From positions 1 to 49,473 of the forward strand of contig JAGCDE010000056.1 of assembly GCA_017651315.1 (NCBI GenBank): a DNA stretch of 49,473 nt. Reading direction: 5' to 3'. A program made the position numbers and the translations under genes. Shown piece by piece: positions 39,091 through 49,473 of this stretch (positions within the stretch are counted from its first letter, which is position 1; each line of letters begins with the position of its first letter). The DNA comes from Bacteroidaceae bacterium. Lineage in GTDB: Bacteria; Bacteroidota; Bacteroidia; Bacteroidales; Bacteroidaceae. The notes under the pieces were generated by a model. It saw nothing but the letters and a program-made list of their open reading frames with translations, made no database searches and had not been told where the DNA came from.

Positions 39091-39121
39091 GGTCCCTGCC
39101 TCTGAACAAGCTTCAAGGCCG

Positions 39122-39149
39122 AAAAAAAGCGTGCGAGGATTCGCACGCT
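39122..39149 (-). terminator. Terminator of the GH43 / sugar-acid operon
   Basis: AGCGTGCGA at 39128-39136 and TCGCACGCT at 39141-39149 form a perfect 9-bp stem with a 4-base loop. On the minus strand a run of seven T follows (39128-39122). It stands 53 bases behind the GH43 stop codon. Confidence 0.85.
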
Positions 39150-39151
39150 TC

Positions 39152-39202: not shown

Positions 39203-40681
39203 TTATTTCAGCGGCTCGAAATGGCGGAAATACCATTTGCTGTTGTCCGAACTGAAATTGAACCCGGCCAGAGTCGGAGTGCAGTCACCCATCGACACCA
39301 AAGCCAAAGGCTCGGAATGACCGGGAACCTTCTTGGGCATGATACGGAAGCTGCCGTCAGTAAGCTGGTCGATTCTCCACAGCTGCTCGTCAGCACCGGT
39401 GAATGCCGAGACAACCTGCACCTCGGCATCAGCAGTAGCTGCAAGAGCCCTCTCTGTACCCGCAATCAGAATCTTGTAGTAGGGGCCACCAAGATAGCCT
39501 CCGGCATCGGGTACAGCCTGGACAGTCCAACGTTGCCAGGGTCGTGCCACATAGTAGCCGTTTCTGGCCTGACAGTCACCCTTCGGCCAGGAGTCTATCA
39601 CTTCGGACAGCTGCTGGTTGGGAACCGATGCGGGAGCTGAAGCCCCGCCGTTACGGCCACCTCCCATGCCGCCCATACCACCTCCCGTACGGACAAAATC
39701 AACAGTCATCTCAAGAGCATATCCGTTTCGGGCAGTCTCTATCTCATATACTCCGTCCTCGAAAGGATCGCCAGCCTCCGGCCAGTCATTTTTCCAGAGC
39801 AAAGGTCTGATGGCCAACACACTGCGGCCACCCTGATCAAGGTCTGCCTCAAAATGGCAGGACATCTTCTCGACACCCTCCTCTATGATATATCTGCCGA
39901 AATGGCCGGGACCTACCCTTCGGCCTTCGGTGGAGAGGACCTTGCGTCCGCCGCCCTCGATCATGGTACGGCCCACATTGTCAATGAACGGACCGTTTAC
40001 GCTCCTGGAACGGCCTACATATATCGTGTATGTGGAGTTGGCTCCGTCACAGCATGTTCCGTGCGTGCCGAGCAGATAATACCATCCGTTCCTGTACATC
40101 ATGACACTGGCCTCACAATCCACAGCCACATCGATTGCCTCGTTTCCTTCGACGCGGAATCCTGTGGCGGGATCAAGCTCCACCTGACGTATGAATCCGT
40201 AATATGTCCCGTAGGTACACCACAGCCTTCCGGTAGTTGGATCAAGCATAAGGCCTACGTCAATGGCATCGCAGTCCTCATCCTCCACCGAACTGGCCAC
40301 TACGACAGGATCGGTATATTTGAAGTCGGGAGAATTGGGGTCAAGGGTCTTGTTCCACATTGTGAGGATCCGGCCAGCATGACCGCCGCCCAGTCCGCCG
40401 CCTGTGGCACTGTAGGCAACCAGATAGCGGTCACCTATCTTCATCGCGTCAGGAGCCGCTCCGCCGCCAGGCCTCACCGCTCCGCCGCTCCAATGCCATC
40501 CGTCCTCGGAGATCAGACCTCCGCCACCTGTTCCGAAAGTGTAGTATTTGCCGTCACACTCGACTATCGTCGAAGGGTCATGTATGAAGGGGGCGCCTAT
40601 CTGTCCGTACATGTCAACCGCAGCGGCCGACAGTATCAGCCCTGCACATAAATATTTGATATTCTGTTTCATATTCTTCAT
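39203..40681 (-). CDS. Exported GH43-like glycoside hydrolase with C-terminal lectin-like domain
   Basis: The 492-residue product has a signal peptide (KYLCAGLILSAAAVDMYG) and a five-bladed GH43-type domain. Candidate catalytic acids are Asp in FIHDPSTIV near residue 35 (base), Asp in DAIDVGLML near 140 (modulator) and Glu in DCEASVMMY near 188 (acid), the layout of arabinanases. A Gly/Met-rich linker (GGMGGMGGG) near 340-350 leads to a beta-trefoil, ricin-like region (PWQRWTVQAV...GTERALAATADAEVQVV). It likely cuts an arabinose- or xylose-containing plant glycan in the periplasm or outside. Unusually, it ends an operon of sugar-acid genes and has no SusCD pair nearby. Two nearby Met starts are possible. 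Confidence 0.75.
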   Translation of the reverse strand: MKNMKQNIKYLCAGLILSAAAVDMYGQIGAPFIHDPSTIVECDGKYYTFGTGGGGLISEDGWHWSGGAVRPGGGAAPDAMKIGDRYLVAYSATGGGLGGGHAGRILTMWNKTLDPNSPDFKYTDPVVVASSVEDEDCDAIDVGLMLDPTTGRLWCTYGTYYGFIRQVELDPATGFRVEGNEAIDVAVDCEASVMMYRNGWYYLLGTHGTCCDGANSTYTIYVGRSRSVNGPFIDNVGRTMIEGGGRKVLSTEGRRVGPGHFGRYIIEEGVEKMSCHFEADLDQGGRSVLAIRPLLWKNDWPEAGDPFEDGVYEIETARNGYALEMTVDFVRTGGGMGGMGGGRNGGASAPASVPNQQLSEVIDSWPKGDCQARNGYYVARPWQRWTVQAVPDAGGYLGGPYYKILIAGTERALAATADAEVQVVSAFTGADEQLWRIDQLTDGSFRIMPKKVPGHSEPLALVSMGDCTPTLAGFNFSSDNSKWYFRHFEPLK

Positions 40682-40698
40682 TTTGAGAGTTCAGCAAA

Positions 40699-41475
40699 TC
40701 ATTTGCATGTAATGGTCAGATTGGTGATAGGATTACCCTTGTCATCGATGAAACGGGCACAGAAATCGCTCATGCTCGGACCGTTGATGATGCCTGCACG
40801 AACTATGTTGCGGCCCTTCTTGAGGGTGATCCGCTTGGAGACTGCACTGTCAACATTCATGTGCCTGTCACCGGAAAGAAGGAGCAGTTCCTCGCCGTTC
40901 ACCCACCACATGGAACCCTTGTTGGTACCTACTGCCAGACGAACGTTCTCCATATCCCGGTCGCACTCCACTATGGTCACCGCCCAGAAGACCACGCCAT
41001 AACGGGTCTTGCCCAGTCCGGTGGCGAATCTGAACAGTTTGATGTTGAACAATTTGCTGTCAAGGGCATGCCAGGTAAGCTCAGCATCCTCCATGACCGG
41101 GGTCTGGGACTGGTTGGCAGCCGGACGGCCTGCCTGAAGGTTTACGGGAGCCTGTGTCTCCATCTTCACCTTAACCTTGTCACCGTCCTTGGGGATGGTT
41201 GTGAACTGACCGGGGAAATACTCATGGGTCAGAGCATCCCTTACATAACTGTCAGTGAAGACACGGTTGTTACGGTTGGGCTTGCTGATAGGTTCAAGCA
41301 GGAGCCAACGGCGGATGAATCCCTTCTCGTCAGGCTTGGCAGTCTTTGTCGTGGCAGGCATGAAATAGTTTTCAAAAGCCGGTGAGGATGACTCCTGGGC
41401 AGAGATTCCGGGCTGCACAACGGCAAGCATCACCGATGCCAGGAAAAATGTCAGTAATTGGGTTTTACAGGTCAT
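40699..41475 (-). CDS. Exported beta-sandwich protein, often found with or fused to acetylxylan-esterase-like enzymes
   Basis: The 258-residue product has a signal peptide (LLTFFLASVMLAVVQPGISA). The mature part has conserved blocks FIRRWLLLEPISKPNRNN near residue 53, WHALDSKLFNIKLFRFA near 139, GSMWWVNGEELLLLSGDRHM near 189 and RAGIINGPSMSDFCARFID near 225. I know this module from Bacteroides carbohydrate loci, sometimes attached to esterases; the MWWVNGEE part resembles a ligand-binding jelly roll. No Ser-His-Asp esterase signature is present, so catalytic activity is unlikely. It lies 17 bases ahead of the GH43 gene and 19 behind the propeller gene. Confidence 0.6.
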   Translation of the reverse strand: MTCKTQLLTFFLASVMLAVVQPGISAQESSSPAFENYFMPATTKTAKPDEKGFIRRWLLLEPISKPNRNNRVFTDSYVRDALTHEYFPGQFTTIPKDGDKVKVKMETQAPVNLQAGRPAANQSQTPVMEDAELTWHALDSKLFNIKLFRFATGLGKTRYGVVFWAVTIVECDRDMENVRLAVGTNKGSMWWVNGEELLLLSGDRHMNVDSAVSKRITLKKGRNIVRAGIINGPSMSDFCARFIDDKGNPITNLTITCK

Positions 41476-41494
41476 CTTACAGTTTATTTATCTG

Positions 41495-42505
41495 TTAATA
41501 ATACAATACCACCTCGTTCTGTCTCTGGTTGGCGCTGAGGATGTAGTCAACACCTTCGGAATTGAACACAAGAGTCTGTGTAGGGCCGGCATCCTGCTCT
41601 ATCTGATGACGTTCGAACAGGCCGTTGGCCGGGTCCCTGGCTGTGAACACGTCAAGAGTGAAAGTTCCTCTGCGGTTTCCCACAACGACAACAGGCTCTC
41701 CACGGAACATGCCGCAGCTCAGGCCATGGCCGAACGAAAGAGAATCAGTGAACAGAGGTTTCCATGCATCGTCATGCTTTCTATAGATATTGAGCGTGTT
41801 GCCATGGAACGGCTCAATGGTCACAAGTTCATCCTGACCGTCACCATCCAGGTCAACGAAACCGAACTCGCTGACCTCCCTGTCAAACAGTTTCTCCATG
41901 TTCCATTTGCAGTCTGTCCCGAGAGTGAAACCGAATATTCCTTCGGCACCGGACACACACATCATCTCCTTACCTCCAATCCTGTACCTCAACATTCCGT
42001 GGTTCCTTGTCAGGGAACTGTAGAGCAGCTGAGGTGCGGAAGGCTCGCCCTTGTCATTAAATCCTATGACATACACCTCACCCTTGCATGACCAGTCGGC
42101 AGGATTCTCCTTGAACCGGCTTACCGAAGCGGCAAAGACCCAGTTCCTGCCCCCGGCCTCGAGAATGTCGCAACGGTGTGCGAATGGCAAGGGCATCTGC
42201 CTGACAGTTTTCCAGCCGTCAGCTCTCCGGCAGTGCATGAACAGGCCCGCTTCGGCACCAACGAACGGGGGGAAAAGACCCATGATTGAAAAGAACATGT
42301 CCGGATTGCCGGGGACCGGAACAAAACTCATCACCCCTCCGGGACAATCCGCCACGAACTCCGAAACACCTGTTTTCAGATTATGGAGAAAAACCTGCGG
42401 AGTCGTTTCAGAACCGGCAGCGACAAATGTATCGTTCCCTATACGGAATGCATTGGCAGTATAGACCTGCTCAACCTGCATCAAGACTTTCTTGTCAAGT
42501 TTCAT
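41495..42505 (-). CDS. Cytosolic beta-propeller (FG-GAP-like) protein
   Basis: I start at the ATG at 42505 (MKLDKKVLMQVEQVY), giving 336 residues; the longer frame to 42574 would overlap the permease gene. There is no signal peptide. The chain is a series of beta blades, one with the calcium-binding FG-GAP/VCBS pattern DLDGDGQDELVTI near residue 222, others marked by GNPDMFFSIMG, GGRNWVFAASV and GEPVVVVGNRRG. This fold can be a lactonase, an isomerase or a binding protein. In an operon with a sugar-acid permease and kinase, a lactonase or epimerase role is possible, but no active-site residue can be named. Confidence 0.6.
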   Translation of the reverse strand: MKLDKKVLMQVEQVYTANAFRIGNDTFVAAGSETTPQVFLHNLKTGVSEFVADCPGGVMSFVPVPGNPDMFFSIMGLFPPFVGAEAGLFMHCRRADGWKTVRQMPLPFAHRCDILEAGGRNWVFAASVSRFKENPADWSCKGEVYVIGFNDKGEPSAPQLLYSSLTRNHGMLRYRIGGKEMMCVSGAEGIFGFTLGTDCKWNMEKLFDREVSEFGFVDLDGDGQDELVTIEPFHGNTLNIYRKHDDAWKPLFTDSLSFGHGLSCGMFRGEPVVVVGNRRGTFTLDVFTARDPANGLFERHQIEQDAGPTQTLVFNSEGVDYILSANQRQNEVVLYY

Positions 42506-42519
42506 ATTTTGCTGTTTTA

Positions 42520-43854
42520 TCAATGAACAATTGTGAATATAACCCATACGGTGAGCATTGCACCTGTTCCGCACAGCAGGGTTCCGAGGGTATGGAAACG
42601 GTATCCCTGCCTGACAGTCATGCCGGTCATCTGCGTAATGACCCAGAAGAAACTGTCATTCACATGTGAAACCACCATCGCGCCGGAACAGAGTGCTGTC
42701 ACTGCCAGAGCCTTCTCTATAGGAGCCACGAAGCCCATTGTCTCCATCAGTGGAGCGAGCAGTGACGCTGTAGTGATTATGGCTACGGTCGATGACCCCT
42801 GAGCGGTCTTGAGCGCGGCAGCTATCAGGAAAGGCATCCATATCCCCAAGCTGGAGCCGGAAACGAAACCGCCTACCACATCGGCGATGCCGGAATCCCT
42901 CAGCACCATTCCGAAAGAGCCGCCTGCCGCGGTAATCATGATAATGACAGCAGCCGAAACCAGCGACTTGCCGACCCAGCCGGAAGTGGAGAGCATCTCC
43001 AGGTCAAACTTCCTGGGAAGCATGAATCCCAATGCCATACCTATCAGCAGGGCCACCACAGGCTCACCTATGAATCCGAGGAGCGTTTTCACAGTTCCCG
43101 TACCGAAAGGATTGGTGGGGAAGTCAGAAACCGACTTAAGGACGATAAGCAGCAATGGCACCACGATAGGCAGGAACGACTTGACTGCCGAAGGGGCGTG
43201 TTTCACTCGCTCCTCAATCTCCTGGTCACTCTCGTTGGGCGCAGGGTCAATGTATGTCCTTGAGACGAACCTGTTGACAAAGACCAGGGCTATGACGAAA
43301 GAGACCATGCTCGCGACTATTCCTGTCAGGATCACAAGCCCCAGGTCTGCCCCGACGATGCTTGTGGCGGAAATCGGTCCCGGTGTGGGAGGAACGAGAC
43401 AGTGGGTAAGGGTAAGACCCAATGAGAGGGCTATGGCCGAAGCGGCCAGAGTTATCCCCGCTTTCTTGGACAGAGCCTTGTTGAGCGGAGTCATTATCAC
43501 GAATCCTGAATCGGCATAGACCGGAATCGAGATGATGTAACCGAGCAGCAGCATGACCAACGGTACACGCTTCTCTCCGGCCAGCTTCATGACACTGCGG
43601 GCCATGATATATGCCCCGCCGGACTCTTCAAGGAAGGTTCCGATTATACATCCCGCCACAATCACGATTCCGATGGATCCAACGGTATTGCCGAATCCGT
43701 TGTTGACCGACTTGATTATCTGGCCCAACGGTAGTCCGGAACAGAGCCCGTATCCGATGGCCGCTATAATCAGGGCCAGGAACGGATGCAGCTTCAGCTT
43801 GGCCGTGGATATGACGATGAACAGGATTGCCGCAACCAGAAGAACAATCAGCAT
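42520..43854 (-). CDS. gntP: GntP-family gluconate/sugar-acid permease
   Basis: I start at the ATG at 43854 (MLIVLLVAAILFIVIS), giving 444 residues; a longer frame to 43950 would run into dhaL. About twelve membrane helices are visible, with family motifs GYGLCSGLPLGQIIKSVNNGFGNTVG near residue 36, GGAYIMARS near 79, and HCLVPPTPGPISA near 147, which is diagnostic for GntP. GntP proteins are proton symporters for gluconate, fructuronate, idonate and related acids. The central position in the operon points to the imported compound being an aldonate or similar acid. It is 22 bases behind dhaL and 14 ahead of the propeller gene. Confidence 0.88.
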   Translation of the reverse strand: MLIVLLVAAILFIVISTAKLKLHPFLALIIAAIGYGLCSGLPLGQIIKSVNNGFGNTVGSIGIVIVAGCIIGTFLEESGGAYIMARSVMKLAGEKRVPLVMLLLGYIISIPVYADSGFVIMTPLNKALSKKAGITLAASAIALSLGLTLTHCLVPPTPGPISATSIVGADLGLVILTGIVASMVSFVIALVFVNRFVSRTYIDPAPNESDQEIEERVKHAPSAVKSFLPIVVPLLLIVLKSVSDFPTNPFGTGTVKTLLGFIGEPVVALLIGMALGFMLPRKFDLEMLSTSGWVGKSLVSAAVIIMITAAGGSFGMVLRDSGIADVVGGFVSGSSLGIWMPFLIAAALKTAQGSSTVAIITTASLLAPLMETMGFVAPIEKALAVTALCSGAMVVSHVNDSFFWVITQMTGMTVRQGYRFHTLGTLLCGTGAMLTVWVIFTIVH

Positions 43855-43876
43855 AAGACCTGTTTTATGATTACGG

Positions 43877-44527
43877 TTATTTGTCGAGAAGCTCCTTGAC
43901 AGAACCGGCCATGGAGACGAGCAGGAGGCAGCATGAGGCCGAACCGGCATCCATCACGCCACGCGAACGTTCACCGAGCCTGCTCGAACGGCCAAGTCTC
44001 GCCACCATATCGACCGTACTGTCACGCCCGGCCTCGGCAGCCCTTGACATACGGTCCAGCGATCCGGCGAAAGAGCATCCCTCCGCCACCGCCTGTTCCA
44101 TAGCCTCTTTTGCGGGAATCAGCACATCCATAAGAGTCTTGTCACCCACTTTTGCAGGTGAAATGGCCTGTATTGCCTCGACAGCCCCTTTCAAGGCAGC
44201 GAGAAAATCCTCCTTCCCTATGAGTTCCTTACCCTCGAACGACTTGCCGAATGCGGCGAAGAACTTTCCGTAGAGCGGTCCCATGGACCCGCCTATCTTC
44301 ATCAGCAGGATCTTGCCCAATGTCTTCAGCCCGTATGTCAGGTCACCAGGCTGCTTGTCCAGGGCCTCACGGCAGAGCGTGAAACCCTTGTTCATGTTGA
44401 TGCCATGGTCACCGTCGCCTATGGCGCCGTCTATGTCACTCAGATACTGCTTGTTCTCCTGAATGGCAGTTATCATCCTGTCAACCAGCAGGATTCCTTC
44501 TTCCTGTGTAAACTGTTCCATAACCAC
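43877..44527 (-). CDS. dhaL: DhaL-type nucleotide-binding subunit of a ketose kinase
   Basis: The 216-residue all-helical product has the ADP/ATP-binding motifs of DhaL: IDGAIGDGDHGINMNKG near residues 34-50, IGGSMGPLYGKFF near 76-88, and GAVEAIQAISPAKVGDKTLMDVL near 110-132. It supplies the nucleotide in the two-part dihydroxyacetone-kinase fold. E. coli pairs DhaKL with the PTS protein DhaM; no dhaM is here and Bacteroidales lack a typical PTS, so this pair probably uses ATP directly. Two in-frame starts lie 6 bases apart. It follows dhaK after 3 bases. Confidence 0.9.
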   Translation of the reverse strand: MVMEQFTQEEGILLVDRMITAIQENKQYLSDIDGAIGDGDHGINMNKGFTLCREALDKQPGDLTYGLKTLGKILLMKIGGSMGPLYGKFFAAFGKSFEGKELIGKEDFLAALKGAVEAIQAISPAKVGDKTLMDVLIPAKEAMEQAVAEGCSFAGSLDRMSRAAEAGRDSTVDMVARLGRSSRLGERSRGVMDAGSASCCLLLVSMAGSVKELLDK

Positions 44528-44530
44528 GTA

Positions 44531-45526
44531 TCAGACAGTAAGACCAATCGAAGCGGCCTCATAGTCAATGCAGGCCTTCAGTTCATCATCAAGTTTCATG
44601 ACCGACAGAGTGGCACCGGCCATCTCAAGCGAGGTGAAGTAGTTGCCCACGAAAGAGCGGTAAACCCTTATACCTCTCTCCTCCATGATGCGATAAACCT
44701 CATTGTAAAGGATATAGAGTTCCATCAAAGGAGTGGAGCCAAGTCCGGATACAAGAACCACGGTCTCGTCTCCCTCGCAGAACGGCAGGTCAGGAAGAAT
44801 CACGTTGCACATCCTTTCTGCAATCTGTGCAGCTGTCTCCAACGGAGCCACTTCGATTCCGGGTTCGCCGTGATGCCCGATACCCACTTCCATCATGCCG
44901 GGCTCTATCGTGAAGTTGGGATGACCCACCTCAGGAATGGTGCACGGACTCAGTCCTACTCCCATGCTGCGGGTGTTGCCGATAGCCTTCTTCGCCACCG
45001 AGACCACCTCCTCAAGAGTTCCGCCCATGGCAGCCTTGGCTCCACCGGTCTTCCACATCAGTATCTCGCCTGCCACGCCTCGGCGCCTTTCGGGCTCTGT
45101 CCGGGGAGCTGACGGGACATCATCATTGGCCACGACCCTGGCCACCTTAATCCCGTCCTCCTCAGCCTGCTCCATGGCTATCTCCACATTCATGTTGTCG
45201 CCTGCATAATTGCCGTAGAGGATGGCGACACCCTTGCCGGCATCGGCCTCACGTATGGCATCATAGAACATCTGTGCGGGAGGCGACGAGAAGAGTTCTC
45301 CCACAGCCACTGCATCCACCATGTTCCTGCCGATATAACCGATGAAAGCCGGCTTGTGACCTGAGCCTCCACCTGTTACGATACCTACCTTGTTCTCCAC
45401 CGGTGCATTACAGTATTTGAGCACCCGTTCATTTCCGGTAACCGCGATGAGCTCGGGGTGTGCCTTGACAAAACCCTGCAACATCTCATCGACCACATTA
45501 CCGGGATCATTGATAATCTTCTGCAT
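44531..45526 (-). CDS. dhaK: DhaK-type substrate-binding subunit of a ketose kinase
   Basis: The 331-residue product has the DhaK core: KVGIVTGGGSGHKPAFIGY near residues 47-65, GVAILYGNYAGDNMN near 100, RRGVAGEILMWKTGGA near 150, and GIGHHGEPGIE near 214-224 with the His that binds the ketose covalently as a hemiaminal. Substrate may be dihydroxyacetone, but homologues in tetritol pathways act on erythrulose. It stands between rpiB and dhaL, which favours a ketose whose phosphate can be isomerised by RpiB. The gap to rpiB is 41 bases and contains an intergenic repeat copy. Confidence 0.9.
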   Translation of the reverse strand: MQKIINDPGNVVDEMLQGFVKAHPELIAVTGNERVLKYCNAPVENKVGIVTGGGSGHKPAFIGYIGRNMVDAVAVGELFSSPPAQMFYDAIREADAGKGVAILYGNYAGDNMNVEIAMEQAEEDGIKVARVVANDDVPSAPRTEPERRRGVAGEILMWKTGGAKAAMGGTLEEVVSVAKKAIGNTRSMGVGLSPCTIPEVGHPNFTIEPGMMEVGIGHHGEPGIEVAPLETAAQIAERMCNVILPDLPFCEGDETVVLVSGLGSTPLMELYILYNEVYRIMEERGIRVYRSFVGNYFTSLEMAGATLSVMKLDDELKACIDYEAASIGLTV

Positions 45527-45547
45527 AAGTAATCAGGTTAAAATAAT

Positions 45548-45569
45548 AATTCAAAACAGATTCTAAATT
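45548..45569 (-). repeat. Intergenic repeat copy inside the sugar-acid operon
   Basis: The minus strand reads AATTTAGAATCTGTTTTGAATT, the cleanest copy of the family also at 20848, 39065 and 39152. It lies in the rpiB-dhaK gap and just overlaps the rpiB stop codon. Its presence within an operon suggests an inserted element or an RNA-level signal. Confidence 0.55.
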
Positions 45570-46029
45570 AAGGATGGAAGGACTTCCTTTCCAGTTCATG
45601 CATCTGGTCAACCTTTGGCTGGGAACCGCCTCCCTGGAACTCGGATACAAGCCACGCGTCAACAATAGTCTTGGCGAGTTCCGGACCAATCACACGGGCA
45701 CCCATTGTGAGAACCTGTGCATTATTGCTCTTCCTGAGTCTCTCTGCGGAAAAAACGTCATGACAGACTCCGGCATAGACACCTTCCACCTTGTTGGCAA
45801 TCATAGCCATCCCCAGACCGGTGCCGCAAATCAGGATACCCCGCTCAAACGAACCGTCTTTTATCCGGCAGGCCAGGTTATAACCAATCTCGGGATAGTA
45901 AGCCCCCTTTTTCTGACCCAGATAATCAAGGTCCGTCACTTCAACTCCTTTCGTTTCAAGATGCCTTACAATGACTTTCTTAAGTTCAAGCGCGGCATCA
46001 TCACAATCAATTACGACTTTCATAAACAC
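45568..46029 (-). CDS. rpiB: RpiB/LacAB-family sugar-phosphate isomerase
   Basis: The 153-residue product has the RpiB fold and catalytic features: DCDDAALELKK near residues 9-19, YPEIGYNLA near 48, GILICGTGLGMAMIANKVEGVYAGVCHD near 64-91 with the conserved Cys-Gly-Thr-Gly, and NNAQVLTMGARVIG near 101-114. RpiB interconverts ribose-5-P and ribulose-5-P; the homologue EryI of Brucella acts on D-erythrulose-4-P, giving D-erythrose-4-P. Next to DhaKL, that second activity is plausible. It is the first gene of the left-reading operon. Confidence 0.9.
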   Translation of the reverse strand: MFMKVVIDCDDAALELKKVIVRHLETKGVEVTDLDYLGQKKGAYYPEIGYNLACRIKDGSFERGILICGTGLGMAMIANKVEGVYAGVCHDVFSAERLRKSNNAQVLTMGARVIGPELAKTIVDAWLVSEFQGGGSQPKVDQMHELERKSFHP

Positions 46030-46064
46030 ACTTCAACTGTAGAGTAAACAATGTTGTAAAAATA

Positions 46065-46072
46065 CAAATAAA
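46065..46072 (-). promoter_or_regulatory. Possible -7 box for the rpiB operon
   Basis: The minus strand has TTTATTTG at 46072-46065, one base from TAnnTTTG, with TTTG about 17 bases upstream (46093-46090). The leader to the ATG at 46029 would be about 30 bases. Moderate fit only. Confidence 0.35.
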
Positions 46073-46108
46073 TATTACAATTGCGGCACAAAACGGATAA
46101 AAAGTGTT

Positions 46109-46116
46109 TATCTTTG
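46109..46116 (+). promoter_or_regulatory. -7 box for the garR-like gene
   Basis: TATCTTTG, a perfect TAnnTTTG, lies 61 bases before the ATG at 46177. The -33 region is A-rich without TTTG. With the divergent rpiB promoter it forms a 147-base shared control region, but no regulator gene is adjacent. Confidence 0.5.
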
Positions 46117-46176
46117 TCTTACAAGGTAGAGAGGATACAAACTAACCAGTAATCTCATTTAACAAATAAAAATCAA

Positions 46177-47079
46177 ATGGACAACAAAAGTAAGAAAATC
46201 GGATTCATCGGACTTGGAGTTATGGGCAAGCCGATGGCCAAGAACCTGCTGAAAGCCGGGTTCTCCCTTACAGTATTTGACATCAAGGCTGAACCTGTGG
46301 CCGAGCTGGTCGCGTTGGGTGCAGAGAAAGAGTCGTCACCGGCAAAGGTGGCAGGCAAATGTGACATAATCATCACCATGCTGCCAAACTCCCCGCATGT
46401 GATTCAGGTCCTGACCGGCAAGGACGGTGTCCTGGAGGGCATCAGACCCGGCAGTATCATCATTGACATGAGCTCCATCTCGCCGGTAGTGGCAAAAAAA
46501 ATGTATGCAGCTGCTGCCGGGAAGGATGTTGAAATGCTTGACGCACCGGTCAGCGGAGGTGAACCTAAAGCCATTGACGGAACAATGTCTATAATGGTGG
46601 GCGGCAAGGAACAGGTGTTCGAGTCTGTCAAGGACATCCTTCTCTCGATGGGCGGTTCGGCAGTACTCATCGGCGATATAGGCAGCGGAAACACCGCCAA
46701 ACTCGCCAACCAGATCATGGTTGCCCTGCACCTGTCGGCCGTATCGGAGGCTATGGTATTTGCCGAGAAAGCAGGCGTTGACCCCGAGAAGGTGTATCAG
46801 GCCATCCGTGGCGGACTTGCCGCAAGCACGGTTCTCGATGCCAAGATGCCCATGATACTGGATCGTAACTTCAAGCCGGGCGGACCCATCTGGATGCACA
46901 CCAAGGACCTGCTCAACGTCCGCGACACCGCTCTTGAGATTGACGCGCCTATCCCGTTGACCACACAGATCCTCGAGGCCATGAAGGCCATGAAGGCCGA
47001 CGGCCACCAGAACGATGACCACTGCGGAATCATCCAGTACTGGGAGAAACTGGCCAACGTCACTGTAAAGAGGAGGTAG
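46177..47079 (+). CDS. garR: 3-hydroxyacid dehydrogenase, GarR-like (2-hydroxy-3-oxopropionate reductase family)
   Basis: The 300-residue enzyme has an N-terminal NAD(P)-binding fold (IGFIGLGVMGKPMAKNLL near residues 8-25), the substrate motif DAPVSGGEPKA near 125-135 and the catalytic Lys in GNTAKLANQ near 175. This superfamily includes tartronate-semialdehyde reductase, 3-hydroxyisobutyrate dehydrogenase, L-threonate dehydrogenase and 6-phosphogluconate dehydrogenase. It is divergent from the rpiB-dhaKL-gntP operon. Either it reduces tartronate semialdehyde to glycerate, or, by analogy with 6-phosphogluconate dehydrogenase, it oxidises an imported aldonate at C3 so that it loses CO2. The gene symbol is by family only. 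Confidence 0.85.
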   Translation: MDNKSKKIGFIGLGVMGKPMAKNLLKAGFSLTVFDIKAEPVAELVALGAEKESSPAKVAGKCDIIITMLPNSPHVIQVLTGKDGVLEGIRPGSIIIDMSSISPVVAKKMYAAAAGKDVEMLDAPVSGGEPKAIDGTMSIMVGGKEQVFESVKDILLSMGGSAVLIGDIGSGNTAKLANQIMVALHLSAVSEAMVFAEKAGVDPEKVYQAIRGGLAASTVLDAKMPMILDRNFKPGGPIWMHTKDLLNVRDTALEIDAPIPLTTQILEAMKAMKADGHQNDDHCGIIQYWEKLANVTVKRR

Positions 47080-47122: not shown

Positions 47123-47178
47123 TGTTCCGCTGTCGGAACAAAAAAAGAATCAGGGTGACCTTCCGGCCACCCTGATTC
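47123..47178 (-). terminator. Terminator of the large exported protein gene, plus a second hairpin
   Basis: GAATCAGGGTG at 47147-47157 pairs perfectly with CACCCTGATTC at 47168-47178; on the minus strand seven T follow. It lies 20 bases behind the stop at 47198. A second hairpin, TGTTCCG-CTGT-CGGAACA at 47123-47140, adjoins it and may serve the garR transcript, though without a T run. Confidence 0.75.
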
Positions 47179-47197: not shown

Positions 47198-49473
47198 TTA
47201 CCGCATTATCTTCTCCACCGTACGGGTGCCGTCAGCATTGGTTCCGACACGGATCAAAGTACCCTTGCGTGAAGCATCGGTCTCGATACCGTCTATAGTA
47301 TAGTATCTGTAAGACTTGACCTCACTGCGTGCAGCGGGAACGAATGTCAGGCACTCGGCTATCACATTCTTCTGGGCTGCTGCCAGAGCGGCATAGTCCG
47401 AAGCAGGACGCTTGGCGGTCAGATAGAGTTCCCAGTTGTCTATGCGGCCCCATCCGTTACCACCGGCAACCACTACCTTGGCATTGATGGAATCCGTCAC
47501 ATCCAGATTCTCAGCAAAGACATTGGCCTTAGCCGGATAGTTCTGGTTGGAGGATGCGATATGGACAGTGTCAGCGACATCACCGACTGTACCTACAAGG
47601 ATAGTGTTGCTGATCTGGTTGTTCAGACCCACACCGATTGAGTAGATACCCTCAGGCAGTCCCTTGACAGTCTGCTCGAGCTCAAGCTTGGCGCTCCAGT
47701 CGAATGCAATGAAGCCGTCCATGATCTCCGGTTTGTCCTCCCAGTTCTGAAGCTCGCTTACCACATGTACGTTGCCGCCCAGTCCGGTTACCGTCCAGCC
47801 CGGATAAACCGTCGTAAAGGTTGAAGTGACAAGCCTCCACCTGTTGTTAGGAGTACCGTATGAGTAGTTGTAGTGTTCAACCTCCACATCCTTCTGGGCT
47901 GTGCAGTACAGGTTATAGTTGGTAATGAACGGAGTCAGGTTCAATGTGTCGGCTTCGCCTGTTGCGAGGATGTCATAGACACGGTACTTGATTATCTCCT
48001 TGAGCAGGGCAGCCAGCTCCTGGTCATCAGTACGGAGATTCTCCATACGGGCGCTCAGGTTTGCGGCAAGCCCTTCCTGGATCTCGTCGAAGTTGACCTC
48101 AAGGTCACCGGCAAGCTTGTAGAGGCCCTTGACCTGTACGGTCTGTGCGGCAATAGGACCATATACATACTGGTATGCCTTTACACTGCCGTTCAGAGCA
48201 CTGATAGCGTCAGTAAGCTGTTCGTCAGTTCCGGCTATGTAATCAACATCCTTGTATGTATCGTATGCAGCCTGCAATTCAGCGAATTCCGGGAGATAGC
48301 TGTACTCCTGCTCCTCTTCCAGAGTTGCAGCAGCCGATTTGAGAGCATTTACGAAATTGTTGTCGAGTGTGACACGGTTATTCACCGCAGTTACGGCATC
48401 GGCAAGCTCATTGATTATATCATTCAGCTCTTCGCTGTTCTTGGCTGTGACATCAAGATCCGAATAAGCAAGCAGAACGGTCACAAGATCCGTGAATGCC
48501 TGCAGTTCCTTCTCATTCTCCTCGGCATACTGGTCACGTTTTGCCGAGGCGTTGCTATAACCCGTAAAGAACTTGTCAACAAGAGTGATTCTTGCACGCA
48601 TCTCGGATGTGCCATCACTTATCGCAGCCGTAGCAGCCTTCCACTCGGCGGGAGATGTGCTGGTGAACCCGTTATATCCATCAAGGATATCAGTCTTGAA
48701 CTTTTCAAAATCCTCACCGGTATATTTGCCTTCAGCAGCCAATACTTCATCCTTGAGAGCAAGGGCATTGTTATATGCAGTCTCAAAGTCACCCAGCAGC
48801 AGACGATGCTTCGAATAGCAGTTGGTAACCTCCACATCACCGAATGCGATACCTGTCCAGCCGCTTGCATCTATACGCCACTTCATAACATAAAGACCCT
48901 CCTCCGTAATCTCGATATCCTGTGAGAATACGTCGGCGTCATCCACCACAGTGGCAGTGCCGCTACCACCTACACGCCAGTGGGCCGCAGTAGGAGTGAG
49001 TTCCTCGGAGATAAGTGGATTCTCCTCGTCATCCATCTTGTAGAACGAGAAGGTGAATTTCTGCTTGTTGGTCTCCCAACCGGTGTATTCGAAGCGTACA
49101 CGAATCATGCCGGGCTTCAGGTCCAATGTGTAATCATTGACCTCACCGTATGTAGCCTCACCAAAGTTAGCACCCTGACGCGGTCCGAGATAGAAGCAGC
49201 GGAAGAAATCACTGCCCTCCGGATAGTGACGCAGACTACTACCCTGTAAACCGGTCTCTCCGCTCTGGTGGGTACCGGTTGCATCGGTGCAGATAAATCC
49301 TAACGGCATTGTATTATCGTTCTGCTCGTCGAAATTACCCTGCATGTAATAAACAGGAGGATCGGAACTTACAGGACCGTAAGACAACTCCATTTCGAAA
49401 GGATCGGCACTCTGACCGCCAGAGTAACTCTTGACGTAAGCCACGATAACCTTGTAGTCTCCGTTCAGTGTCT
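47198..49473 (-). CDS. Large exported protein of unknown function (5' end outside the window)
   Basis: The frame is open to the right edge of the window (codons before the apparent start read TLNGDYKVIV), so the N-terminus with any signal peptide is missing; about 758 residues are visible. Visible parts are an N-terminal beta-sandwich region (GVYYMQGNFDE-like pattern, YTLDLKPGMIRVRFEYTGWE), a long helical stretch near residues 210-430 with FIVAR-like repeats (AYNNALALKDEVLAAEGKY, TDAISALNGSVKAYQYV), a beta-domain (GLPEGIYSIGVGLNNQISN, GWGRIDNWELYL) and a C-terminal tail YRYYTIDGIETDASRKGTL ending VEKIMR. Such tails close many secreted Bacteroidales proteins and resemble type IX sorting tails. 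No enzyme motif is recognised. Confidence 0.65.
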   Translation of the reverse strand, partial: TLNGDYKVIVAYVKSYSGGQSADPFEMELSYGPVSSDPPVYYMQGNFDEQNDNTMPLGFICTDATGTHQSGETGLQGSSLRHYPEGSDFFRCFYLGPRQGANFGEATYGEVNDYTLDLKPGMIRVRFEYTGWETNKQKFTFSFYKMDDEENPLISEELTPTAAHWRVGGSGTATVVDDADVFSQDIEITEEGLYVMKWRIDASGWTGIAFGDVEVTNCYSKHRLLLGDFETAYNNALALKDEVLAAEGKYTGEDFEKFKTDILDGYNGFTSTSPAEWKAATAAISDGTSEMRARITLVDKFFTGYSNASAKRDQYAEENEKELQAFTDLVTVLLAYSDLDVTAKNSEELNDIINELADAVTAVNNRVTLDNNFVNALKSAAATLEEEQEYSYLPEFAELQAAYDTYKDVDYIAGTDEQLTDAISALNGSVKAYQYVYGPIAAQTVQVKGLYKLAGDLEVNFDEIQEGLAANLSARMENLRTDDQELAALLKEIIKYRVYDILATGEADTLNLTPFITNYNLYCTAQKDVEVEHYNYSYGTPNNRWRLVTSTFTTVYPGWTVTGLGGNVHVVSELQNWEDKPEIMDGFIAFDWSAKLELEQTVKGLPEGIYSIGVGLNNQISNTILVGTVGDVADTVHIASSNQNYPAKANVFAENLDVTDSINAKVVVAGGNGWGRIDNWELYLTAKRPASDYAALAAAQKNVIAECLTFVPAARSEVKSYRYYTIDGIETDASRKGTLIRVGTNADGTRTVEKIMR

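What the first reader, a model, noticed from the sequence alone, without database searches (positions are those of the whole stretch)
39203..47079. Seven-gene operon plus divergent dehydrogenase: an unassigned sugar-acid pathway ending in a DhaKL kinase and RpiB
The order rpiB-dhaK-dhaL-gntP-propeller-sandwich-GH43 (46029 to 39203, gaps of 3-41 bases, one terminator) with a divergent GarR-like dehydrogenase is seen directly. Known families: GntP imports aldonates; the dehydrogenase superfamily oxidises 3-hydroxyacids, and its member 6-phosphogluconate dehydrogenase decarboxylates; DhaK-type kinases and RpiB homologues (DerK, EryI) act on erythrulose and erythrulose-4-P in tetritol use. Inference: an imported C5 aldonate is oxidised at C3, loses CO2 to give a tetrulose, is phosphorylated by DhaKL with ATP and isomerised to erythrose-4-P. 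A simpler alternative is dihydroxyacetone formation from a C4 acid. No DUF1537 kinase, aldolase or SusCD pair is present, which sets it apart from the described threonate and erythronate pathways.
Basis: partly seen in the sequence, partly recalled or inferred. Interest (0 to 1): 0.75.

Follow-up and report, generated by a model that had tools for sequence, protein, structure and literature searches.

The report
Xylan-linked sugar-acid operon with propeller enzyme
A conserved set of six genes in gut Bacteroidales, often sitting beside plant-fibre-degrading genes, looks like an undescribed route that turns an imported sugar acid into a four-carbon sugar phosphate, using a propeller-shaped protein that is probably an unrecognised enzyme.

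Summary
In detail: seven genes (46029 to 39203, gaps 3-41 nt) plus a divergent dehydrogenase. The conserved unit is six genes: rpiB-dhaK-dhaL-gntP-propeller-dehydrogenase. rpiB-dhaK-dhaL-gntP recurs in 20 of 41 related loci; 15 of those 20 have GH3, GH10 or GH43 glycosidases nearby. The sandwich and GH43 genes belong to that glycan part.

Three enzymes have conserved, non-standard active sites. RpiB lacks both E. coli ring-opening histidines, while 13 of 14 carriers keep a normal RpiB elsewhere. DhaK has YGNYAGDN/GHHGEPG instead of dihydroxyacetone-kinase motifs. The dehydrogenase is its own clade beside tartronate semialdehyde reductase, with a rewritten substrate loop. This argues against dihydroxyacetone plus tartronate semialdehyde and for a tetrulose.

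The new element is the propeller. It is linked by sequence to aldos-2-ulose dehydratase (histidines align with AUDH His155/215/295) and fused to the dehydrogenase in three genomes. I propose that the pair converts a sugar acid to a tetrulose (D-erythrulose); DhaKL (ATP) and RpiB then give erythrose-4-phosphate. Substrate and propeller reaction are inferred, not shown.

The parts
45568..46029 (-). rpiB: RpiB/LacAB-family isomerase, EryI/DerI-like (erythrulose-4-P to erythrose-4-P proposed)
   Evidence: PF02502 160 bits; lacks both E. coli ring-opening His in 35 of 35 rows examined; paralogue control
44531..45526 (-). dhaK: ketose-binding subunit of an ATP-dependent tetrulose kinase (proposed)
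   Evidence: PF02733 373 bits, NCBIfam dhaK1 354.8 against cut-off 406.25; YGNY[AS]GDN and GHHGE motifs in 39 of 44 rows
43877..44527 (-). dhaL: nucleotide-binding kinase subunit
   Evidence: PF02734 179 bits; TIGR02365 170.9 over cut-off 138.3
42520..43854 (-). gntP: GntP-family sugar-acid permease (ORF opens at 43950; likely start 43854)
   Evidence: PF02447 334 bits; TIGR00791 276.9 against cut-off 292.75
41495..42505 (-). propeller: stand-alone VCBS/FG-GAP propeller (no signal peptide by eye) related to aldos-2-ulose dehydratase; proposed metal-dependent keto-acid enzyme
   Evidence: alignments A1, A2 with H110, H169, H234, H260 invariant; link to AUDH; fused to the dehydrogenase in L012, L014, L038
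46177..47079 (+). dehydrogenase: TSR-like clade with rewritten substrate loop; proposed sugar-acid dehydrogenase
   Evidence: TIGR01505 376.3 bits; 171 of 295 identical to 1vpd; loop GPI[WKR]MHTKD; own clade 99/98
40699..41475 (-). 258-aa protein without a known family (signal peptide by eye); accessory, part of the glycan cluster
   Evidence: no Pfam or NCBIfam match; relatives beside GH43/SusCD genes
39203..40681 (-). GH43-like glycosidase with ricin-type lectin domain; accessory
   Evidence: PF04616 60 bits, PF14200 31 bits
39121..39150 (-). intrinsic terminator of the operon
   Evidence: hairpin plus T-run read; not listed by the scanner
46030..46176 (.). 147-nt divergent intergenic region between rpiB and the dehydrogenase
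   Evidence: one promoter-like + strand site at 46054-46081, but such sites are no commoner than in shuffles (6 found, mean 6.5)

Best explanation
It is a sugar-acid catabolic operon whose conserved core is rpiB-dhaK-dhaL-gntP-propeller-dehydrogenase. Proposed mechanism: GntP imports a sugar acid (best guess a D-pentonate such as D-xylonate, because of the xylan-type neighbourhood). The TSR-derived dehydrogenase oxidises it to a keto acid. The AUDH-related propeller, holding a metal in its centre and using histidine 110 as base, polarises the keto group and converts the unstable intermediate (decarboxylation of a 3-keto acid) to D-erythrulose. DhaKL phosphorylates D-erythrulose with ATP and RpiB isomerises D-erythrulose-4-phosphate to D-erythrose-4-phosphate, which enters the pentose phosphate pathway. 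Shown: gene conservation, co-occurrence, fusion and active-site changes. Inferred: substrate, direction of the dehydrogenase, reaction and metal of the propeller, stereochemistry.
For: Order conserved in 20 of 41 loci. Propeller and dehydrogenase are one frame in 3 loci and convergent neighbours in 3 free-living genomes that carry rpiB-dhaK on another contig. An Opitutales genome has rpiB-propeller-cupin-dhaK-dhaL-TIM-TIM. RpiB: 13 of 13 operon copies examined have D/S where 17 of 17 other copies and E. coli have His/His; structure 5ifz has S/S. DhaK motifs differ from E. coli and Lactococcus DhaK in 39 of 44 rows; in L040 the same DhaK type follows an SDR dehydrogenase gene. All 22 operon-type dehydrogenases of the tree form one clade (99/98) with loop GPI[WKR]MHTKD against GFRI[DK]LH[IQ]KD in 3 TSRs. 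Glyoxylate carboligase 0 of 18 at E up to 1e-150, DhaM 0 of 14, DUF1537 kinase 0 of 14 gut carriers. Propeller to L049 hhalign E 7.5e-10; L049 to AUDH 4a7k phmmer E 1.5e-5; His columns align. GH3/GH10/GH43 relatives in the fetched DNA in 15 of 20 loci, GH10 in 6.
Against: The dehydrogenase is over both NCBIfam TSR cut-offs, so a TSR role is not excluded. A tetrulose kinase is inferred from motif change, not from a characterised orthologue. RpiB misses the cut-off of the erythrulose-4-P isomerase model (160 against 240) and has lost the GGRHQxR phosphate motif (role recalled), so its phosphate binding must differ. The propeller misses the Pfam AUDH cut-off (18.5 bits in the best member listed singly, cut-off 27), and its alignment to L049 covers only residues 96-336. 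The GH3 genes match a xylosidase model best but below its cut-off (743.5 against 1250), and no background rate of such genes in these genomes was measured. No C5 sugar acid is a xylan product known to me. Eight of 13 free-living carriers have no propeller found, so the step can be done otherwise. No structure could be predicted.
Confidence: 0.42

Rival explanations
1. Uronate or hexulosonate cleavage: the propeller (or another protein) cleaves a C6 keto-acid such as fructuronate to dihydroxyacetone and tartronate semialdehyde; DhaKL makes DHAP and the dehydrogenase is a true TSR making glycerate; RpiB is the first isomerase.
For: 58% identity to Salmonella TSR and scores over both TSR cut-offs; glycerate kinase PF02595 in 10 of 10 gut carriers outside the own genus; GntP family includes a fructuronate importer (recalled); xylan carries glucuronate (recalled).
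Against: Substrate loop of the dehydrogenase is rewritten in all 22 operon-type copies of the tree while three TSRs keep theirs; DhaK motifs are not those of E. coli and Lactococcus dihydroxyacetone kinases; RpiB has lost the ring-opening His and would not suit a cyclic uronate; PF02595 in 0 of 4 own-genus carriers (genomes 62-83% complete).
Confidence: 0.13
2. C4 acid route: threonate or erythronate is oxidised, the 3-keto acid is decarboxylated to dihydroxyacetone by the propeller, and DhaKL makes DHAP.
For: L-threonate dehydrogenase is in the same superfamily (205 bits, below its cut-off of 350); needs few enzymes.
Against: Leaves rpiB, present in 20 of 20 gut-type loci, without a role; DhaK motifs differ from dihydroxyacetone kinases; DUF1537 kinase in 0 of 14 gut carriers.
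Confidence: 0.1
3. Branched C5 acid route: D-apionate is rearranged and decarboxylated to erythrulose, then DhaKL and RpiB, as in described apiose pathways.
For: The published oxidative apiose route is recalled to end in erythrulose; apiosidase PF13204 in 12 of 13 free-living genomes with rpiB-dhaK.
Against: PF13204 in 0 of 14 gut carriers including the own genome, at E up to 1e-10; gut loci sit beside GH3/GH10/GH43 genes. May still hold for the free-living version with TIM-barrel genes.
Confidence: 0.1
4. Hexonate route: D-gluconate is oxidised and decarboxylated to D-ribulose, DhaKL makes ribulose-5-phosphate and RpiB ribose-5-phosphate.
For: GntP family classically imports gluconate (recalled); it would use RpiB in its textbook role.
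Against: Operon RpiB lost ring-opening His and GGRHQxR motif while a second, normal RpiB is found in 13 of 14 carriers; DhaK family kinases on C5 ketoses are not known to me.
Confidence: 0.05
5. The propeller is an isomerase or dehydratase (as AUDH is) and the dehydrogenase itself or spontaneous chemistry does the decarboxylation.
For: AUDH is a dehydratase (molecule name); a 3-keto acid can lose CO2 without an enzyme (general chemistry).
Against: No unsaturated product fits the kinase and isomerase that follow; fusion to the dehydrogenase suggests hand-over of its direct product.
Confidence: 0.2

Closest known systems
Brucella erythritol pathway (EryI = RpiB) and tetritol/erythrulose pathways with dihydroxyacetone-kinase-type kinases (DerK/DerI; the latter recalled)
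   Same: RpiB-family isomerase with the SNNAQ motif as in 5ifz and a DhaK-type kinase upstream of erythrose-4-phosphate; passages on EryI, and on dihydroxyacetone kinase plus these isomerases acting on L-erythrulose, seen in PMC5992420.
   Different: Entry is a sugar acid through GntP, dehydrogenase and propeller, not a polyol oxidation; no TpiA-like isomerase in the operon.
D-apiose/D-apionate oxidative pathways (Carter et al. 2018; citation seen, paper not held; enzymes recalled)
   Same: Sugar acid, oxidation, loss of CO2, erythrulose, kinase, isomerase.
   Different: Apiosidase in 0 of 14 gut carriers; dehydrogenase and propeller in place of oxidoisomerase and decarboxylase.
Aldos-2-ulose dehydratase/isomerase (AUDH, PDB 4a7k)
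   Same: VCBS propeller; the three His aligned to AUDH His155, 215, 295 are invariant in A2; in one Opitutales cluster it stands next to a cupin gene, as cupins are fused in AUDH (AUDH architecture recalled).
   Different: Stand-alone protein of about 330 aa, below the Pfam AUDH cut-off, tied to a dehydrogenase and a kinase pathway.
Tartronate semialdehyde reductase (GarR/GlxR)
   Same: Neighbouring clade, 58% identity to 1vpd, same K/N catalytic motif.
   Different: Rewritten substrate loop; glyoxylate carboligase in 0 of 18 genomes. A TSR-type relative in G598 sits with a galactarate-type dehydratase.
DUF1537 threonate/erythronate pathways
   Same: Same dehydrogenase superfamily, acid sugar substrate.
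   Different: DUF1537 kinase in 0 of 14 gut carriers.

Membership tests
Tartronate semialdehyde reductase | Score over curated family cut-off | tested here: met
   TIGR01505 376.3 against 340.75; NF008592 456.8 against 397
Tartronate semialdehyde reductase | Substrate loop as in known TSRs (GFRI[DK]LH[IQ]KD) | tested here: not met
   GPI[WKR]MHTKD in the operon-type rows; TSR loop in 1vpd, L071, L074
Tartronate semialdehyde reductase | Source of its substrate: glyoxylate carboligase | tested here: not met
   TIGR01504 in 0 of 18 genomes at E up to 1e-150, E. coli control positive; other sources such as aldolases not tested
Tartronate semialdehyde reductase | Downstream glycerate kinase | tested here: inconclusive
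   PF02595 0 of 4 own-genus carriers (62-83% complete), 10 of 10 other gut carriers; other kinase families not tested
Dihydroxyacetone kinase DhaK | Score over DhaK equivalog cut-off | tested here: not met
   TIGR02363 354.8 against 406.25
Dihydroxyacetone kinase DhaK | Covalent substrate histidine | tested here: met
   second His of GHHGE aligned with that of GIH[GS]EPG; its role is recalled
Dihydroxyacetone kinase DhaK | Active-site motif IKNY[TL]GD of E. coli/L. lactis enzymes | tested here: not met
   YGNY[AS]GDN with GHHGE in 39 of 44 rows
Ribose-5-phosphate isomerase B | RpiB equivalog score | tested here: not met
   TIGR01120 129.2 against 138.65; subfamily NF004051 met, 168.2 against 135
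Ribose-5-phosphate isomerase B | Two ring-opening histidines (role recalled) | tested here: not met
   D or P and S in 35 of 35 rows; other copies keep both, 17 of 17
D-erythrulose-4-phosphate isomerase (DerI/EryI) | Score over NF051858 cut-off | tested here: not met
   160 against 240; the model may be limited to one lineage
D-erythrulose-4-phosphate isomerase (DerI/EryI) | Activity on erythrose-4-phosphate | not testable with these tools
   needs an enzyme assay
Aldos-2-ulose dehydratase propeller | PF22301 gathering score | tested here: not met
   14 of 18 members match at E up to 1; best listed singly 18.5 bits, cut-off 27; relatives L049/L050 are over it, 39.5 and 34.4
Aldos-2-ulose dehydratase propeller | Central histidines His155, 215, 295 | tested here: met
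   aligned through L049 with H110, H169, H234, all invariant in A2; their catalytic/zinc roles are recalled
Aldos-2-ulose dehydratase propeller | Bound zinc | not testable with these tools
DUF1537 acid-sugar pathway | DUF1537 kinase | tested here: not met
   PF07005 0 of 14 gut carriers
GntP permease | PF02447 score | tested here: met
   334 bits against 22.5; TIGR00791 narrowly missed, 276.9 against 292.75

The most novel reading that the evidence does not exclude
The AUDH-related propeller is the founding member of a new class of metal-dependent sugar-keto-acid enzymes (a propeller decarboxylase or isomerase) that works with, and in some species is fused to, a re-purposed tartronate semialdehyde reductase. 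The operon is then an undescribed route by which fibre-degrading gut Bacteroidales turn a xylan-associated sugar acid into erythrose-4-phosphate through a tetrulose.
Probability: 0.3. Interest if true: 0.8.

Novelty: new variant of a known kind. Interest (0 to 1): 0.6.

Why it matters
If right, it would give a function to a propeller family that the libraries searched here do not name, explain a catabolic module tied to fibre-degradation clusters in gut bacteria, and show how standard enzymes (RpiB, DhaKL, TSR) were re-tuned together for a C4 sugar. It also warns that automatic names (tartronate semialdehyde reductase, dihydroxyacetone kinase, ribose-5-phosphate isomerase) are probably wrong for this operon. 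The hypothesis is directly testable with a handful of proteins.

Tried and rejected
Apiose as the gut substrate: apiosidase PF13204 in 0 of 14 gut carriers. Tartronate-semialdehyde pathway: glyoxylate carboligase in 0 of 18 genomes and changed loop, kept only as a rival. DUF1537 pathway: 0 of 14 gut carriers. 4-O-methyl-glucuronate as substrate: attractive because of the neighbouring GH10/GH43/GH3 genes and a GH115-type C-terminal domain beside the Opitutales copy L036, but I found no chemistry leading from it to a tetrulose with these enzymes. A search of solved structures with the Draconibacterium DUF5060/Collagen_bind_2 protein gave nothing; the propeller alignment A1 gave two chance-level PDB hits (E about 1). 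Literature: ten searches; no paper listed described this operon by title or abstract start, but one search listed 20 of 62 and 20 of 2,025, and subscription papers are mostly not held. Passages only were seen of PMC6302742, PMC13001218, PMC8023676, PMC5992420 and PMC4795551. The greedy ORF choice gave some false minus-strand ORFs (for example in L011), so counts rest. One search used proteins of three relatives (L010, L014, L020) for GH10, GH3, SusC, SusD, regulator and esterase plus the window's eight as BLAST queries, E up to 1e-20; its table counts PROP in 14 loci because the three fused ORFs are labelled dehydrogenase there, giving 17.

Full report
What is in the window. The eight ORFs are real and at the stated places. 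Gaps inside the minus-strand run are 41, 3, 22, 14, 19 and 17 nt. A hairpin with a T-run closes it near 39121-39150 (seen; not listed by the scanner). Families: RpiB, Dak1, Dak2, GntP, FG-GAP-type propeller, a protein of no known family, GH43 with lectin domain, and a dehydrogenase named tartronate semialdehyde reductase (TSR) by two NCBIfam models over their cut-offs.

Conservation. A scan of genome contigs with DhaK gave 41 loci. Of these, 20 have rpiB-dhaK-dhaL-gntP in this order; I call them gut-type. The titles of 17 of the 20 name rumen, omasum, horse faeces or RUG isolates (RUG taken as rumen from memory); L008, L009 and L013 name no source. In all 17 loci whose DNA reaches past gntP the propeller follows. 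The dehydrogenase is next to the operon in 19 of 20 (L027 ends in gntP): divergent in L007-L009 as in the window, downstream of the propeller in the other 16. In L012, L014 and L038 the propeller and the dehydrogenase are one open frame of 636 codons with no stop between them. In the window's own genus the gene set is sporadic: DhaK in 4 of 37 genomes, many of them incomplete. The propeller is rare: among 395 genomes of the phylum only the window's own had a full-length match, plus two partial ones, and 3 of 240 genomes of the phylum of G599 had one.

Neighbourhood. In 15 of the 20 loci a GH3 (12 loci), GH10 (6) or GH43 (7) relative lies in the fetched DNA. The other five are L007, L009 and L018 (short contigs) and L017 and L019. 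Seven have SusC/SusD and seven a hybrid two-component regulator. In L010 about 20 nt separate the GH10 stop codon from the rpiB ORF on the same strand (coordinates). In L011, L012, L021 and L047 the regulator ends 10-12 nt before rpiB (33 in L015), and in L011 and L047 a GH3 gene starts 1 nt after the dehydrogenase. The GH10 call is firm (PF00331 293 bits). The GH3 protein matches a xylosidase model best but below its cut-off (743.5 against 1250), so 'xylan' rests on family make-up. No comparison was made with random 20-kb stretches of the same genomes.

A second, free-living version. Thirteen genomes (12 Bacteroidota, among them G050, and one Opitutales, G599; 14 loci) carry rpiB and dhaK, with dhaL where the contig reaches it, without gntP next to them. 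The typical order is GntR - MFS transporter nearest the galactonate type - TIM barrel - rpiB - dhaK - dhaL - TIM barrel (families tested on L031). Of 19 such or more distant genomes searched with the propeller alignment, 5 have it: G050, G592, G596, G599, G600, so 8 of the 13 lack it. In G050, G592 and G600 it stands convergent to a dehydrogenase of the operon type, on another contig than rpiB-dhaK. In G596 the contig ends after it. In G599 it lies in rpiB-propeller-cupin-dhaK-dhaL-TIM-TIM-GntR (the GntR by BLAST to the L029/L031 regulators). So propeller and dehydrogenase travel with the kinase and isomerase in several contexts.

RpiB. The E. coli-type ring-opening histidines (role recalled) are replaced by D (34) or P (1) and by S (35) in 35 of 35 rows: the window, 33 of 41 loci and the second copy in L070. 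The 8 loci without an RpiB match are L024, cut at its edge, and L040-L046. Structure 5ifz, which I recall as Brucella RpiB, has S and S. PMC5992420 (passages only) names Brucella EryI as RpiB and as the erythrose-4-phosphate isomerase. Control: of 14 carriers 13 have two RpiB copies and G004 (62% complete) one; 4 genomes of the genus in which one search found no DhaK have one each. All 17 non-operon copies keep both histidines and GGRHQxR; all 13 operon copies for which a locus was given have D, S and GGGS[QL]PK. A substrate that cannot form a ring needs no ring opening, which fits a tetrose phosphate; that reading is inference.

DhaK. The window has GGGSGHKPAF, YGNYAGDN and GHHGEPG where E. 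coli and Lactococcus DhaK have GHEP, IKNY[TL]GD and GIH[GS]EPG. YGNY[AS]GDN with GHHGE is in 39 of 44 rows; the five without are L006, L042, L043, L044 and L046. L040 and L041 (Lichenifustis, Acidisoma) share it but keep GHEP, and in L040 an ABC protein, a periplasmic binding protein, a DeoR regulator and an SDR dehydrogenase precede dhaK, as expected for a polyol-to-ketose route. DhaM was found in 0 of 14 carriers, so ATP is the likely phosphate donor.

Dehydrogenase. It is 58% identical to Salmonella TSR 1vpd (171 of 295) and over the TSR cut-offs, but the 22 operon-type copies in the tree form one clade (99/98) beside the TSRs (30 rows, duplicates of the same genes left out). The loop FRIDLHIKD of 1vpd is GPI[WKR]MHTKD in the operon type, while TSR-type proteins of a Prolixibacteraceae genome (L071/L086, beside a galactarate-type dehydratase) and of Lichenifustis (L074) keep the TSR form. 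Glyoxylate carboligase was found in 0 of 18 genomes. Glycerate kinase PF02595 is in 10 of 10 gut carriers outside the own genus and 0 of 4 inside it, which leaves the TSR reading open.

Propeller. It has no signal peptide by eye and four histidines invariant in 18 rows (H110, H169, H234, H260). Its profile finds two proteins (L049, L050) at E 1.7e-8 and 4.2e-8, over its second half, and both pass the Pfam AUDH cut-off. L049 in turn finds AUDH 4a7k at E 1.5e-5, and hhalign of the propeller profile with L049 gives E 7.5e-10 over residues 96-336, or 6e-11 with L049, L050 and the AUDH stretch together. By position, H110, H169 and H234 fall on AUDH His155, His215 and His295. That His155 is the proposed base beside a zinc ion is recalled from the AUDH structure paper; I saw only its citation. 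A caution: the alignment to AUDH passes through L049, and the propeller itself scores below the AUDH cut-off.

Mechanism and limits. Taken together, the kinase, isomerase and dehydrogenase each look re-tuned away from their textbook substrate in a conserved way, and the propeller looks like an enzyme. The simplest common reading is sugar acid to keto acid to tetrulose to tetrulose phosphate to erythrose-4-phosphate. D-erythrulose is preferred over L-erythrulose because no TpiA-like second isomerase is in the operon, and a D-pentonate would give D-erythrulose after C3 oxidation and loss of CO2; both points are inference from known chemistry. D-xylonate is the best guess only because of the xylan-type neighbours, and xylan is not known to me to release it. 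The substrate is therefore open.

Against the reading: TSR cut-offs are passed; the erythrulose-4-phosphate isomerase model is not passed; RpiB has lost its phosphate motif; the propeller is missing in 8 of 13 free-living carriers; and no structure could be made.

Noticed in passing
L070:10576-15846 (Opitutales genome G599): Second, independent cluster rpiB-propeller-cupin-dhaK-dhaL-TIM-TIM-GntR in the same genome that also has the L036 cluster without propeller; the cupin recalls the propeller-plus-cupin make-up of AUDH.
   Followed up: partly
L031, L025, L033, L034, L035 (free-living Bacteroidales): GntR-MFS-TIM-rpiB-dhaK-dhaL-TIM type operons (no GntR gene seen in L034), some followed by DUF5060/Collagen_bind_2 proteins; a related sugar-acid route with TIM-barrel enzymes and, in these genomes, an apiosidase-family gene.
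   Followed up: partly
L067:1-948 and L056:3734-4072: A uroporphyrinogen-decarboxylase-family gene (PF01208 in L067; L056 has a short relative near its contig end) lies beside the propeller-dehydrogenase pair in two free-living genomes.
   Followed up: no
L086:7900-11839 (genome G598): A TSR-type gene sits with a galactarate/altronate-type dehydratase and a GntP-like permease (33% to a gut-type GntP), a useful contrast to the window operon.
   Followed up: partly
L084:7778-9761 (phylum of G599): A distant propeller relative (34%) stands next to an AP_endonuc_2 TIM barrel, with a rhamnose-mutarotase domain protein nearby.
   Followed up: no
window 47198-49444: Large protein of at least 748 aa near the window edge, no Pfam family over cut-off; a relative (c33, 87% to the window's) flanks the operon also in L008, where a purH-like gene lies on the other side, so the locus is shared within the genus.
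   Followed up: partly
window 47147-47178: Strong terminator-like hairpin (14 pairs, T-rich tail) between the dehydrogenase and the convergent large gene.
   Followed up: no
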